From an uncultured Spirochaetales bacterium (GTDB lineage: Bacteria > Spirochaetota > Spirochaetia > Sphaerochaetales > Sphaerochaetaceae): a stretch of DNA of 64,000 nt. The stretch lies in assembly GCA_949283305.1 (NCBI GenBank), contig CASDRU010000010.1:62001-126000 (forward strand), written 5' to 3'. A program made the position numbers and the translations under genes. The notes below the pieces were generated by a model, which made no database searches, was not told the origin of the DNA, and was given only the letters and a program-made list of their open reading frames with translations. This document shows, piece by piece, positions 4,288-58,514 of this stretch. The stretch's first letter is position 1. The number at the start of each line of letters is the position of its first letter.

Positions 4288-5033
4288 GCAAGACAGCCTC
4301 CAATATAATATCTGTTCTGAATATTCTCTTTGTAATATTCTTCTCTGCAATTCTTTCTCTCTGCTACATGGACAGCCGCGATATTTATCCTGTCATGCTT
4401 GAGACAATGCCTCTTGCTTTTGTCCTTTTCTTCTCCCTTCTTGCAAACATAATCATAAAAGTGAAGCACCATTCACATACCCCGGAGGGAGAGCTACTTC
4501 CACTTTTATTCCTTTTTCTGTCTCTTGAATGCTCAAGCGTGCTTCCATTCTTTTATACCTGCTCCAGGATAATGGTAATGAACCCGCTTGTCATGAATGT
4601 GATCATCAGGTTTTCTTTCATCTCGACTTCCCTTCTTTTCGTATTCTCTTCTCTGATGTATATGGGAAGCAATTTCAAGCAGCTTGTTAATTACCTGATA
4701 ATCTCACTCTGCTTTTCTTTCCTTCTTTCTGTTCTTGCTCCGGGAAGCAACTCCAGTGATGCCAGCAGCATCAATTTTGGGTCTGTATATGATGTATATC
4801 TCAATTATGCAATCTATATGATCAATGTAGTCAGCATAATCTCTTTCATAGTAGCCATAATAAATGACAAGACCAGAAGAAACCTGAAAAGATGCATTAC
4901 ATACATTCTGCTTGTAATCGGGAATGCAGGCATATTCCTCTCTTCTGCAACCCTTGTTAACGTGATCATATTCCCTCTGATTTTTGCAATTGCAAGCATA
5001 ATGCTCATAATCACAAGCAAGGAAAGTCTCTGA
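4284..5033 (+). CDS. Hypothetical 7-TM membrane protein
   Basis: Unrecognised integral membrane protein of 249 residues with about seven hydrophobic helices (around residues 7-28, 36-58, 70-92, 100-123, 132-150, 175-195 and 205-245). It has short charged loops and no catalytic motif that I can see. The start codon overlaps the stop of the upstream symporter-like gene by 4 bp, so the two are almost certainly co-translated and may act together. It could be an accessory subunit of that transporter or an unrelated sensor; the sequence alone does not decide. Confidence 0.6.
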   Translation: MSKTASNIISVLNILFVIFFSAILSLCYMDSRDIYPVMLETMPLAFVLFFSLLANIIIKVKHHSHTPEGELLPLLFLFLSLECSSVLPFFYTCSRIMVMNPLVMNVIIRFSFISTSLLFVFSSLMYMGSNFKQLVNYLIISLCFSFLLSVLAPGSNSSDASSINFGSVYDVYLNYAIYMINVVSIISFIVAIINDKTRRNLKRCITYILLVIGNAGIFLSSATLVNVIIFPLIFAIASIMLIITSKESL

Positions 5034-54379: not shown

Positions 54380-54412
54380 GCCTCTGGGCAAAGCGCTCAG
54401 AGGTTTATTTTT
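54380..54412 (+). terminator. Terminator after GH112 operon
   Basis: CCTCTG / CAGAGG stem then a T-rich run. It also ends the convergent macrodomain gene. Confidence 0.75.
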
Positions 54413-54921
54413 TCTACATACATAGAAAGTTCAGCTTCCATGTTTTCTGCCAGATTGATGAGTTCCTCATCAAACAGCACAATATATGCTTTCATATCAG
54501 AAGAGAGGCCTGCTGAGATCGTGCGTGCTGCAATGAGCAATGCTTCCTTTTTGGGATAGCCATATACGCCGGCAGAAATCAGGGGAAAGGCGATAGATTT
54601 AACATTCCTTTTCTTAGCTTCTTCAATGCATCTCTTGTAGCAGGATGTCAAAAGGGCCTCCTCATTATGTTTTCCCCCTCTCCAGACAGGTCCGACTGTG
54701 TGAATAATATATCTTGATAAGAGATTATATCCTGCTGTCACTTTAGCATCCCCTGTCTCGCAGCCGGAGAGAGCAATGCATTCTTTCAGCAGCTCTGGCC
54801 CAGCTGCCCTGTGTATCGCACCGTCAACACCTCCTCCGCCAAGAAGAGAATTGTTTGCTGCGTTGACAACAGCATCCACTTCCATTTTTGTAATATCTGC
54901 TTTAATTATCTCAAGACTCAT
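54397..54921 (-). CDS. Macrodomain protein, ADP-ribosyl hydrolase/O-acetyl-ADP-ribose deacetylase type
   Basis: Stand-alone macrodomain of 174 residues. ADITKMEVDAVVNAANNSLLGGGGVDGAIH at the start and ISAGVYGYPKKEALLIA form the ADP-ribose pocket. Homologues remove ADP-ribose or the acetyl group of O-acetyl-ADP-ribose. The gene is single, convergent on the GH112 gene, with an extended -10 promoter 6 nt from its ATG. Confidence 0.9.
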   Translation of the reverse strand: MSLEIIKADITKMEVDAVVNAANNSLLGGGGVDGAIHRAAGPELLKECIALSGCETGDAKVTAGYNLLSRYIIHTVGPVWRGGKHNEEALLTSCYKRCIEEAKKRNVKSIAFPLISAGVYGYPKKEALLIAARTISAGLSSDMKAYIVLFDEELINLAENMEAELSMYVEKINL

Positions 54922-54936: not shown

Positions 54937-54954
54937 CAGGGAAAACTGAAAGGA

Positions 54955-55160
54955 AGCGGAGAAGTATACTGACTGCTCCCACAGGCAAGCCTGTGGGGTT
55001 CAGGTGAATAGGCTTATACCATATCCGTGCATCATTTTCAGACTTTGGGACTAAGGCTGCCACCCAGAGCACCTAAACTGCCGGACAAGCACCGCACTCA
55101 GCACATTAGCGCCCGGCTTCTGCCCTCTCGAACAGGGAGAGACAGTCAGCTCCCCCATAT
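54955..55160 (-). ncRNA. Candidate guide (omega-like) RNA downstream of the TnpB-like gene
   Basis: The 200-bp non-coding stretch after the nuclease stop is more GC-rich than nearby gaps and full of self-complementarity on the nuclease strand. Elements include a CTCTC/GAGAG hairpin (55125-55141) and a GCCGG/CCGGC helix pairing 55080-55084 with 55113-55117. A perfect 9-bp hairpin CCCACAGGC/GCCTGTGGG lies at 54978-54997. CTGACTG (55143-55149) and CAGTCAG (54969-54975) could close the whole RNA. TnpB omega RNAs arise from exactly this place, but ends and function are inferred. Confidence 0.55.
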
Positions 55161-55167
55161 TGTTTTT

Positions 55168-56784
55168 TTACTTCAAGTTCTGTTTTTCTCCTCCTCGAGC
55201 TCTTATTCCGCTGTTAAGCACCTTCCTTCCTGAAAGCCTTATCCTCTCAATCTCTTCATCATGCATCCTTCTGATGCATGAGAAACTTTCATTGCACTTC
55301 ATGCCATCTATCATCATCTTACCATCACCATCCATGCATGCATTGTATAGAAGGAACGACGAATAGAGGTCCCGCTGCACCATCGTCCCATCTGAAAGGG
55401 TGAACATCCTCTCAGACAGCTTCCTTTTCTCATACTCTCCATTTGTGTGATCATATTGCGAAGCCCTGTAGTCATAAGGGACTTCAAAGTACTTTCCTCC
55501 GGTTGAAAGGAAAACTTCTTCCACATGTCTCTGAAAGTATCCGGGACAACGGTTCCTTATCGACTTGCCGAATCTCTTCTTCCTGCCTGTCTTCCCATTG
55601 ACTGCTGTCTCCTTTGTACGGAGCATCAGCTTCTTCGCATTCCTAGGCTCCGTTATGAAGACATCTCCAAGGCTCCTTATATGGTTTACATCCTCCCTTA
55701 TTGCCAGATGGCGGTTTATGGAGTTCTTTCTCTGAAGAGAGGAAAGTCCTTTTCTGTTCTCAATGTAGTTCTTTGAGAAGGTCCATTTCTTAAACCCTTT
55801 TCTTATTGTTCCATCCTCATTGAAATTCCGGGGATTCATCTCTCTTCTTGAGCGGTCAAGCTTCCTTAAGAGGATTCTCTCAATCCTTTCGCTCTTTGAG
55901 ATTGCATCGCCTCTTTCGGCAAGATTCCTGAGGCCGCACTCTTTATCAGAAGTATAGGCAATCGTCTGGGTGCCGATGTCGCAGCCGATTACACCCCTTT
56001 CATATTTGTGACGAGGGGAGCCATCCTTATTGAACTTTGACTTCGCCTTCCCTTCAATCGTGAGATGGATGAAGACTCTGAGCTTCCCTCTTATCTCCTC
56101 GCATTTTAGCGCGGCATAGCATGGACGGTATGTGTCAGAGATTTCCCCGGTCTTCGCATCACCCTCTTCTCTGTGAGCCAGATAATCGAGTACCGCATCA
56201 ACCTCATCCCTCTCGAACCTGTCCCTTATTATCGGGGAGAAGGTGATGCAATCACAGGATAGGACTAGACGGTTGGCAATGTTCTTCACTGTGATGATTC
56301 TCTCAATCTGCTTGGCCCTTAGGATGGGGAGATTACCTCTTCTTTGGAAATGGATTATTCGCCCATCCTCAAAGAGTACTTTCTCCACACCTCTCCAGAT
56401 GTCTTCGGCACGGGTGAGTGCGAACACGCTGGGAAGGCCGTATTTCTTTCCAATCGGAATCATGGCTTTCCTGAAGAAGTCCCAGCTCACGCCATATTCG
56501 GCCTGCATGGCCTTCATCTGTGATGAAAGATGGGACCTCATCGCCTTGTCATTGTTCTCAGAAGCCTTGCCGTAAAGCGTTTTCAGTTTCCTGTACCTTT
56601 TTGTCCTAAGAAGCTGGGAGATGCTGTTCTTCATCAATGCTGTAAGCTCGTTGCCGGCAAGGCGGAGACGGTCCGCCATGCCGAAGATGCTCCTCTTCGA
56701 CTTCTCATCCATATCAGCCTCAAGCACGAGGACATGCCTTGGGCTCTTCTTTCTTAAGGATTTCATGTCATCATCCAATGGCAC
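55168..56784 (-). CDS. TnpB-like RuvC nuclease lacking the zinc ribbon
   Basis: Up to 538 residues with a RuvC-type nuclease core like TnpB of IS200/IS605 elements. Putative catalytic residues are Asp about 269 in GVIGCDIGTQT, Glu about 379 in DVFITEPRNAKKL and Asp about 472 in VQRDLYSSFLLYN, with TnpB-like spacing. The zinc-ribbon CxxC pairs normally between the last two are absent: ASQYDHTNGEYEKRKLSER stands there instead. The N-terminal half is basic and helical. Start is uncertain among GTG 56784, TTG 56778 (7 nt after GGAGG) and ATG 56766. No TnpA transposase is nearby. A fallback reading is a transposase-like protein of the same fold. Confidence 0.72.
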   Translation of the reverse strand: MPLDDDMKSLRKKSPRHVLVLEADMDEKSKRSIFGMADRLRLAGNELTALMKNSISQLLRTKRYRKLKTLYGKASENNDKAMRSHLSSQMKAMQAEYGVSWDFFRKAMIPIGKKYGLPSVFALTRAEDIWRGVEKVLFEDGRIIHFQRRGNLPILRAKQIERIITVKNIANRLVLSCDCITFSPIIRDRFERDEVDAVLDYLAHREEGDAKTGEISDTYRPCYAALKCEEIRGKLRVFIHLTIEGKAKSKFNKDGSPRHKYERGVIGCDIGTQTIAYTSDKECGLRNLAERGDAISKSERIERILLRKLDRSRREMNPRNFNEDGTIRKGFKKWTFSKNYIENRKGLSSLQRKNSINRHLAIREDVNHIRSLGDVFITEPRNAKKLMLRTKETAVNGKTGRKKRFGKSIRNRCPGYFQRHVEEVFLSTGGKYFEVPYDYRASQYDHTNGEYEKRKLSERMFTLSDGTMVQRDLYSSFLLYNACMDGDGKMMIDGMKCNESFSCIRRMHDEEIERIRLSGRKVLNSGIRARGGEKQNLK

Positions 56785-56808
56785 ACCTCCTTGTTCTTCC
56801 TTGATTAC

Positions 56809-56817
56809 ATTATACCA
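56809..56817 (-). promoter_or_regulatory. Extended -10 promoter of the TnpB-like gene
   Basis: Read leftward, TGG-TATAAT is a perfect extended -10 about 25 nt before the GTG start; GGAGG lies in between. The stretch 56818-57035 beyond it has no gene I can recognise. Confidence 0.6.
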
Positions 56818-57035
56818 TATATCGTGATATTTTCATATAGCAGAATGAGATATTCTGATTATTCATGGCATTTCAGGTGCCGGCTGTGGCAGAACGGGAG
56901 GAAGGGACGGAAGTATGCATGTTAAGGTTTGTCCTACTTCTCCAATTCCATATTCTGTTGCTTACATCCCATATGCAACCATACGGGTTTTACGCAACTG
57001 GCTTATAACATGATTTTATGGCAGAGATTTTTTTT

Positions 57036-58250
57036 TCAGGTCCAGTCCTTCATCAAGAGGAAGTCCCGGATGTTCTTGTGTATTATTCCATTTCGGCTAA
57101 AGTCAAATTCGTCGAGCGAAACAACAAACTTTGGAAAGTTGTCGCGTATGGAATAAAAAGCGCCAAACTCCCTTTCAATAGTTTCCTCCGATGCAAGAAG
57201 GTAGGCTACCTGCACATAAAGCTTCTCTCCTCCTTTGCGGCATACAAAGTCAATTTCTTTGTTTCCATATTTTCCAACAGTTATTTTATATCCTCTTCTC
57301 AACAGTTCCATATAGACAATGTTTTCAAGGATAAGATTGATGTCCTTTGTGTTGCCTCCGAATACCGCTTCGCGGATACCGTGGTCTGCAATGTAGTACT
57401 TTTCGTTGGAAGCGAGAATCTGCTTGCCTTGAAGGTCCTCCCGCTTTACCTGATAGATCAGATAGGCATCGCAGCAGTATTTGATGTAGTTTAGAATTGT
57501 CTCTGGTGCTACTGTGCGTTTCTCGCTTTTCAGAAACTTTGTCAGAGATGTCGCTGAAAATGTTGTGCCGACATTTGACATGACATAGGCGATGATTCGC
57601 TCCAGCAAGTCCACATCCCTAATCTTGTTTCTTCTCACGATGTCTTTCAGCTGTACTGAGGTGAACAGGTCCTGGAGATACTGTTTTGACGGTTCCTCGG
57701 CAAAACGGAGATTGGCAAGGTAGGGCATGCCCCCGAACAAAAGATACTTCTGGAAAACATTTTGCATTATTTCATCAGGCGCACTCAGATAGTACAGCTC
57801 TGAAAACTCAGCAAAGGAGAATGGATATATTATAAATTCGACATAGCGCCCTCCCAGATAGGTTGAAAGCTCGCTGGACAGAAGCTTGGCATTCGATCCG
57901 CTGATATAGATGTCGCAGTCAAGAGAAATACGCAGGGAATTGATGCATTTTTCCCATTCTTTCACCTCTTGTATCTCATCAAAGAAGAGATAGACCTTGC
58001 CATCTATTGATTCAGCTCTTGCTGTAATCTCATCGTGCAAGGCTCTTGCAGTCTGCAAATGCGAATAACACAAATTTTCAAAATTAATTGAAATAAACTG
58101 AGATGGATTGACGCCAGAGTTTATGATTTCCTTTTTTATAAGTTCCATCATGACCGATTTTCCAGAGCGTCGGATACCAGTGATGACTTTAATCAAATCT
58201 GATCCGATGAAAGGGCGGATTCGGCTCATATACAGTTCGCGTTTAATCAT
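57036..58250 (-). CDS. DUF4143-type AAA ATPase
   Basis: ATPase of about 404 residues of the AAA/DUF4143 group common in anaerobes. Walker A GIRRSGKSVMM, Walker B VYLFFDEIQEV and ISGSNAKLLSSELSTYLGGRY make up the N-terminal ATPase. The C-terminal DUF4143 region ends with a nuclease-like EIDFVCRKGG motif. Function is unknown; frequent horizontal spread suggests an accessory role. The ATG at 58250 follows GGAG; 58280 is an earlier in-frame option. A -10 TATAAT lies at 58287-58292 on this strand. The gap 58293-58514 shows no convincing gene. Confidence 0.8.
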   Translation of the reverse strand: MIKRELYMSRIRPFIGSDLIKVITGIRRSGKSVMMELIKKEIINSGVNPSQFISINFENLCYSHLQTARALHDEITARAESIDGKVYLFFDEIQEVKEWEKCINSLRISLDCDIYISGSNAKLLSSELSTYLGGRYVEFIIYPFSFAEFSELYYLSAPDEIMQNVFQKYLLFGGMPYLANLRFAEEPSKQYLQDLFTSVQLKDIVRRNKIRDVDLLERIIAYVMSNVGTTFSATSLTKFLKSEKRTVAPETILNYIKYCCDAYLIYQVKREDLQGKQILASNEKYYIADHGIREAVFGGNTKDINLILENIVYMELLRRGYKITVGKYGNKEIDFVCRKGGEKLYVQVAYLLASEETIEREFGAFYSIRDNFPKFVVSLDEFDFSRNGIIHKNIRDFLLMKDWT

Positions 58251-58514
58251 GGAGTCAGCTCCTTGCAAGTAATTAATCATATCTCAATTATATCTGAAAA
58301 TCCAAGGAACAAAATAGAATTTATTCGATATAACTTATAAAAACTGTGGTAAAATACAATTTGTAGAGACCAGCTGAAAGAAAAGTGCATGTTTTTTGAA
58401 AATAGAATGGATTAATATGAAAGCTGTAAAAAAACGACAGAGCACTGAGGAAGATGAATAAGCCTCCTGCTCGGAAAAGATAAGGCGCATGAGGATCAGC
58501 TGTTTAGAAGAATG

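What the first reader, a model, noticed from the sequence alone, without database searches (positions are those of the whole stretch)
54955..55160. Structured non-coding RNA candidate at the nuclease 3' side
About 200 bp after the stop codon holds three local hairpins and a 7-bp complementarity (55143-55149 with 54969-54975) that could close the whole segment. A perfect 9-bp hairpin sits near the far end. TnpB guide RNAs are made from this position and end in a guide copied from flanking DNA, so bases left of about 54968 could be the guide.
Basis: partly seen in the sequence, partly recalled or inferred. Interest (0 to 1): 0.7.

Follow-up and report, generated by a model that had tools for sequence, protein, structure and literature searches.

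The report
Guide RNA of a TnpB transposon
The sequence just after this nuclease gene encodes a real, conserved structured RNA whose 3' end is exactly the end of a jumping gene, so the next ~16-20 bases of host DNA would serve as its guide; it is a new, unusually divergent member of the known TnpB/omega-RNA systems, the ancestors of CRISPR-Cas12.

Summary
On the minus strand, 55160->54969 is a ~192-nt RNA scaffold immediately 3' of a divergent TnpB gene (55168-56784). Folding gives a four-way junction closed by pairing CUGACUG (55143-55149) with the terminal CAGUCAG (54969-54975); the + strand does not fold better than chance. A covariance model recovers the same RNA in 30 of 139 family genomes and right behind tnpB relatives only 47-56% identical, with strong covariation on a structure-naive alignment. 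The closing helix itself shows compensatory changes (CTGAGTGC:GCACTCAG, CTGACAGC:GCTGTCAG, CTGACTAT:GTAGTCAG). Conservation stops exactly at CAGTCAG, the transposon right end; 53 distinct flanks show no consensus. Elements start 3' of GTTAT. Four empty sites in related genomes run through the GTTAT/right-flank junction. Relatives carry a Y1 TnpA. So it is an IS200/IS605 omega-RNA (reRNA), with guide from 54968 downward and inferred TAM GTTAT. New relative to the libraries searched: no Rfam, Pfam or NCBIfam match for window RNA or protein, zinc finger lost, RuvC-III QRD motif, and ORF-less omega-RNA mini-elements. Transcription and cleavage are not shown.

The parts
54969..57004 (-). Whole insertion sequence (2036 bp, IS200/IS605 superfamily, tnpB-only copy): left end at 57004, right end at 54969
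   Evidence: LE follows GTTAT and RE ends CAGTCAG in complete copies; boundaries fixed by four empty sites of homologous copies
57005..57009 (-). GTTAT target motif left of the element (inferred TAM)
   Evidence: GTTAT next to 28 of 29 distinct left ends; 1.9% of random windows
56963..56990 (-). Left-end subterminal hairpin (CCCGTATGGTTGCATATGGG)
55168..56784 (-). Divergent TnpB (538 aa, GTG start), RuvC D269/E379/D472, no CCCC zinc finger
   Evidence: PHROG 506 transposase E 1.3e-19; AF2 model pLDDT 87 with best PDB matches TnpB 8h1j Z 16.6 and 8iaz Z 15.8; triad 37/37; dN/dS 0.09-0.13 against genus copies
54969..55160 (-). omega-RNA (reRNA) scaffold; 5' end approximate, 3' end exact
55142..55149 (-). 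5' arm of closing helix, CUGACUGU
   Evidence: pairs with 54969-54976; compensatory changes in L188, L176, L096, L098, L131
54969..54976 (-). 3' arm of closing helix, GCAGUCAG, also the transposon right terminus
55120..55135 (-). Hairpin I (variable length)
55080..55117 (-). Stem-loop II, strongest covariation
54999..55078 (-). Long arm III with the near-invariant CCAAAGYCUGARAAUGRUGYACGG segment
54978..54998 (-). Stem-loop IV, the right-end subterminal hairpin (9 bp)
54949..54968 (-). Presumed guide (20 nt shown, UAUACUUCUCCGCUUCCUUU), host DNA flanking the element
   Evidence: 53 distinct right flanks carry no consensus (about 0 bits) while the end is fixed; position as in ISDra2 reRNA (PMC8612924)

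Best explanation
The segment encodes the omega-RNA (reRNA) of an IS200/IS605-superfamily insertion sequence. tnpB and the RNA lie on one strand and would be transcribed together, reading out through the right end into host DNA (inferred). The scaffold folds into a four-way junction closed by pairing its 5' CUGACUGU with its last eight nucleotides GCAGUCAG (shown by covariation); the next ~16-20 nt, copied from the flank, are the guide (boundary shown, use as guide inferred). TnpB bound to this RNA would recognise GTTAT followed by the guide sequence, which is exactly the empty site left when the element is excised, cut it, and so let repair from the sister copy restore the element (inferred from ISDra2). 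The window copy lacks tnpA and would be moved, if at all, by a TnpA in trans.
For: Fold and strand specificity. Covariation on a model-fitted and on a structure-naive alignment, far above shuffles and slid controls. Compensatory changes in the closing helix. The same RNA lies directly behind tnpB relatives 47-56% identical in Bacillota and viral contigs. The RNA 3' end equals the transposon end at 53 distinct sites, with the flank at about 0 bits. GTTAT stands next to 28 of 29 left ends. Four empty sites are continuous across the left-flank/right-flank junction, and two interrupted reading frames are restored (L175, L197). Y1 TnpA is adjacent in four relatives. TnpB fold and intact RuvC triad; purifying selection.
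Against: No transcript data. The window copy's own empty site was not found: close species G001 lacks the whole neighbourhood. Nuclease activity, guide length and the TAM are inferred. The zinc finger present in characterised TnpBs is missing. Some genus copies have stop codons. The alignment rows are not fully independent.
Confidence: 0.93

Rival explanations
1. The structure is only DNA: subterminal palindromes and ends recognised by the TnpA transposase, with no functional RNA.
For: The right-end hairpin and terminal CAGTCAG must be recognised by TnpA in any IS200/IS605 element; ORF-less elements keep both ends.
Against: Covariation extends over ~190 nt, mostly outside the terminal hairpin. 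The terminal heptamer covaries with a partner 170 nt away. The minus strand folds better than the plus strand.
Confidence: 0.03
2. The TnpB is a domesticated, nuclease-dead RNA-guided repressor (TldR-like) and the RNA guides repression rather than cleavage.
For: The window copy has no tnpA, sits between host genes, and the zinc finger is lost.
Against: The RuvC triad D/E/D is intact in 37 of 37 relatives. The flanks differ from copy to copy and are transposon insertion sites, not a conserved promoter. Relatives are mobile with TnpA.
Confidence: 0.03
3. It is a cis-regulatory leader (riboswitch or attenuator) of the macro-domain gene 54397-54921 on the same strand.
For: The RNA ends 47 nt upstream of that gene's start and on its strand.
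Against: The RNA travels with the element into many unrelated contexts; close species G001 has the macro gene without the RNA; no Rfam match.
Confidence: 0.01

Closest known systems
ISDra2 TnpB-reRNA/omega-RNA (Deinococcus radiodurans; PMC8612924, PMC10097598)
   Same: RNA from the right end of an IS200/IS605 element, 3' guide from flanking DNA, target pentanucleotide (TTGAT) left of the element, RuvC D/E/D. In its structure the last nucleotides before the guide (-2 to -6) pair with -102 to -106, the same topology as the closing helix here.
   Different: Here the guide-proximal helix is 8 bp and closes a four-way junction, the scaffold is ~192 nt and lies wholly after the tnpB stop codon, the motif is GTTAT, and TnpB lacks the CCCC zinc finger (C331/C334/C351/C354 in ISDra2) and is 538 aa instead of 408.
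Typical and Derived TnpB clades of Nety et al. 2023 (PMC10278001)
   Same: A 3' stem-loop within 10 nt of the guide, omega-RNA length within 79-466 nt, an AT-rich motif of at most 5 nt.
   Different: RuvC-III reads QRDLYS rather than DRDXN or NADXN; the conserved structure covers the whole scaffold instead of only the 3' stem-loop (Typical) or that plus two 5' stem-loops (Derived).
IS605-orfB-I RNA (RF03065) and RAGATH-18-derived reRNAs (PMC11701678, PMC11061315)
   Same: Structured RNAs next to tnpB genes.
   Different: No Rfam family matches the segment at the gathering threshold, and nothing related up to E 10.
Cas12f and TranC (PDB 7wju, 8j3r, 9jfq)
   Same: Shared fold in the structure search.
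   Different: No regularly spaced repeats other than tRNA genes were seen around the element and the RNA is a single-locus transposon RNA; TnpB structures rank above them on Z.

Membership tests
TnpB omega-RNA / reRNA | Structured non-coding RNA encoded at the right end of an IS200/IS605 (or IS607) element, same strand as tnpB | tested here: met
TnpB omega-RNA / reRNA | 3' end of the scaffold coincides with the transposon end, followed by flanking DNA (guide) | tested here: met
   53 distinct ends, flank about 0 bits; four empty sites of homologous copies
TnpB omega-RNA / reRNA | Subterminal hairpin within 10 nt of the guide | tested here: met
   Hairpin 54978-54998, 9 nt from the guide
TnpB omega-RNA / reRNA | RNA bound and 5'-processed by TnpB | not testable with these tools
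   needs small-RNA sequencing of the complex
TnpB nuclease | WED/REC + RuvC fold of TnpB | tested here: met
   8h1j Z 16.6 over 342 residues, 8iaz Z 15.8; PHROG 506 E 1.3e-19; 28 of 37 aligned members match NF040570 guided_TnpB, the window protein itself does not
TnpB nuclease | Catalytic D/E/D of RuvC | tested here: met
   D269, E379, D472 in 37/37
TnpB nuclease | CCCC zinc finger in the TNB domain (usual in characterised TnpBs; not treated here as a requirement for membership) | tested here: not met
   Cysteines absent in the window protein and in 34 of 37 aligned members; kept in L129, L153, L154
TnpB nuclease | RNA-guided DNA cleavage | not testable with these tools
   biochemical
IS200/IS605 insertion sequence | Y1 TnpA in the element or in relatives sharing its ends | tested here: met
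   Absent from the window copy; directly upstream of tnpB in L006, L007, L008, L011
IS200/IS605 insertion sequence | Insertion 3' of a fixed short motif without target duplication, subterminal hairpins at both ends | tested here: met
   GTTAT at 28/29 left ends; gapless empty-site junctions; LE and RE hairpins
TldR (nuclease-dead TnpB repressor) | Inactivated RuvC and immobile locus with a conserved guide | tested here: not met
   Triad intact, flanks all different

The most novel reading that the evidence does not exclude
Besides tnpB-bearing copies, the family genomes carry ORF-less mini-elements (243-387 bp) consisting of little more than left end, omega-RNA and right end. If one TnpB charges all of these RNAs in trans, the genome holds a dispersed, self-extending guide bank: each new insertion adds a guide against its own empty site, a scattered analogue of a CRISPR array maintained by transposition, and using a TnpB that has dispensed with its zinc finger.
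Probability: 0.25. Interest if true: 0.65.

Novelty: new variant of a known kind. Interest (0 to 1): 0.5.

Why it matters
It adds a covariation-supported omega-RNA family, tied to a TnpB branch that Pfam and NCBIfam models miss for the window protein, that has lost the zinc finger, and that uses a different RuvC-III motif (QRD). The guide-proximal helix seen as a short pseudoknot in the ISDra2 structure is here an 8-bp helix whose pairing is supported by compensatory changes even though one arm is also the transposon's DNA end, a natural separation of RNA from DNA constraints. With end, motif and empty sites known, the system is directly testable.

Tried and rejected
Rfam search at gathering and permissive thresholds: no related family. 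Pfam, NCBIfam and PDB sequence searches with the window TnpB alone: nothing; PHROGs, relatives and fold search resolved it. Empty site of the window copy: joined flanks found only separately in the own genome; G001 matches only the right side because the neighbourhood there lacks an ATPase gene as well. L032 versus G046 and L099 versus G063 are not clean empty sites (GNAT gene between flanks; deletion around the junction). Short right-end-only hits (L027, L030, L031, L038) have no scaffold; an idea that they belong to another TnpB was not supported by any upstream tnpB ORF. A 13/15 match of the presumed guide to left-end DNA (56935-56949) is no better than other inverted matches in the region. 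Apparent double changes in L025/L179, L178, L180, L181 look like decay or misalignment and are not counted as evidence for the closing helix. Riboswitch for the macro gene: rejected, the RNA moves with the element.

Full report
What is there. On the minus strand of the window lies an open reading frame of 538 codons (55168-56784) followed, 7 nt after its stop codon, by a segment that a covariance model delimits at 55160->54969. Folded as the minus-strand RNA, the minimum-free-energy structure equals the centroid (-79.2 kcal/mol, z -2.46, 4/200 shuffles as good); the + strand is unremarkable (z -0.70). The structure is a four-way junction type: closing helix 55142-55149/54969-54976, enclosing hairpin I, stem-loop II, long arm III, and the right-end hairpin IV.

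Conservation. The window belongs to an uncultured Spirochaetaceae/Spirochaetales genome: its nearest relatives among named records are such MAGs. BLAST finds the RNA in 17 of 48 genomes of the genus. A covariance model built from ten copies finds it in 30 of 139 genomes of the family, and immediately 3' of tnpB relatives 47-56% identical to the window protein from Bacillota/Erysipelotrichaceae MAGs and viral contigs (L096, L098, L132-L135; e.g. L132 ORF ends 4584, RNA 4594-4787), as well as in Holdemanella biformis (L131).

Covariation. On the model-fitted alignment, 43 of 57 pairs show changes on both sides (shuffled mean 24.2; slid controls at most 20) and 319 cells (97.3; at most 54). Because that alignment leans towards the structure, the count was repeated on a MAFFT alignment of 41 sequences: 42 pairs (24.0; at most 23), 243 cells (82.6; at most 68), covariation score 0.353 (0.186; at most 0.119), 0/500 shuffles as high. 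The rows are related and counts are not independent events, but the slid controls keep relatedness. The closing helix: L188 has CTGAGTGC with GCACTCAG, L176 CTGACAGC with GCTGTCAG, and L096/L098/L131 [CT]TGACTAT with GTAGTCAG. These are two-sided changes that keep the pairing, although one arm is also the transposon's DNA end.

Transposon boundaries and guide. At 53 distinct right ends conservation stops at AGTCAG and the following 25 positions carry about 0 bits (the pattern itself imposes the last six letters, but the BLAST hits, found without any pattern, end at or within a few bases of the same place). At 29 distinct left ends, found by the hairpin, 28 have GTTAT close before it; random windows contain it in 1.9%. 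For the window this sets the element at 54969-57004 (2036 bp) with GTTAT at 57005-57009. Joined flanks of four copies were found unoccupied in other species: L190 (G063) in G060, L201 (G048) in G054, L193 (G048) in G054, and L175 (G054) in G048. The alignments pass through the left-flank/right-flank junction without a gap at the junction itself. GTTAT itself is kept in G054 (L201) and altered in the others (e.g. GGTAT). In L175 and L197 joining the flanks restores an interrupted reading frame. The bases after the right end are therefore native target DNA that in the empty site lie directly 3' of the motif, as required of a TnpB guide; for the window copy this is by homology.

The protein. The window protein has no significant Pfam or NCBIfam match and no PDB sequence match, but matches PHROG 506 transposase (E 1.3e-19), and 28 of 37 aligned members match NCBIfam guided_TnpB. 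An AlphaFold2 model from the 37-sequence alignment (mean pLDDT 87, pTM 0.63) has TnpB structures as its three best matches by Z (8h1j 16.6, 8iaz 15.8, 8exa 14.8), then Cas12f. The RuvC triad D269/E379/D472 is invariant in 37/37. The CCCC zinc finger is absent in 34/37 and retained in L129, L153 and L154, so it was probably lost. RuvC-III reads QRD[LMW]Y rather than DRDXN (clades as defined in PMC10278001). dN/dS among genus copies is 0.08-0.14 (dS is near saturation, so only the direction is meant).

The mobile element. Four relatives (L006, L007, L008, L011) carry a Y1 TnpA directly upstream of tnpB with a small RHH-like ORF before it. The window copy is tnpB-only. Several copies have no long ORF: 243 bp (L032), 254 bp (L190), 296 bp (L175), 311 bp (L196), 316 bp (L197), 387 bp (L194), consisting of left end, RNA and right end.

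How it most likely works. Shown: conserved RNA structure, strand, 3' boundary, insertion motif, empty sites, TnpB fold. Inferred from ISDra2 (PMC8612924): co-transcription and read-through into the flank, a guide of ~16 nt, GTTAT as TAM, cleavage of the empty site left by excision, repair from the sister copy. In the ISDra2 structure nucleotides -6 to -2 before the guide pair with -102 to -106, a guide-proximal pseudoknot described as shared by all Cas12 guide RNAs (PMC10097598).

Known or new. The working principle is that of TnpB/omega-RNA (OMEGA) systems. The RNA has no Rfam match, the protein branch is missed by standard family models for the window copy, and zinc-finger loss, the RuvC-III motif, the fully conserved closed scaffold and the omega-RNA-only mini-elements make it a variant. 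Whether this branch has been described in literature outside the open-access library could not be checked. No experiment was available, so expression and activity remain open.

Noticed in passing
L006:3798-4373 (+), also the left-end region of L011, L044, L046-L052, L057: The autonomous relatives carry a divergent passenger gene just inside the left end: a 191-aa zinc-ribbon plus pyridoxamine-phosphate-oxidase-like flavin protein (PF12674, PF16242), unusual cargo for an IS605-type element.
   Followed up: partly
L006:3522-3704 (-), L007, L008, L011: A conserved ~60-aa RHH-like small protein is encoded directly before tnpA, possibly a regulator of the element; no significant family match.
   Followed up: partly
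G000 contigs C1, C2 (L050, L057) and C12, C10 end (L002, L003): Two contig ends carry left ends and two carry right ends with an RNA 91% identical to the window's, so the own genome probably holds at least two more, unassembled, copies of a related autonomous element.
   Followed up: partly
window 54962-58513: Close species G001 has tRNA-Ser directly followed by the macro-domain gene; in the window an AAA/DUF4143 gene plus this element lie between, and TCTCCGCTT of the tRNA 3' end recurs at about 54955, suggesting an att-like duplication of a tRNA-targeted insertion.
   Followed up: partly
L027, L030, L031, L038: Short (~33-49 nt) copies of only the right-end hairpin plus CAGTCAG lie in intergenic DNA without the RNA scaffold.
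   Followed up: partly
RNA positions about 112-135, window 55026-55049 (-): CCAAAGYCUGARAAUGRUGYACGG is nearly invariant from Spirochaetes to Bacillota and is largely unpaired, so it is a likely protein contact or tertiary core.
   Followed up: no
L005, L007-L010: Several genus tnpB copies contain one to three in-frame stop codons while their RNA stays conserved.
   Followed up: no
Alignment A4 members (relatives L092-L154): Ten of 37 aligned members match NCBIfam V_cas_c2c8 (type V C2c8), hinting that this TnpB branch overlaps what was once filed as a CRISPR-associated V-U type.
   Followed up: no
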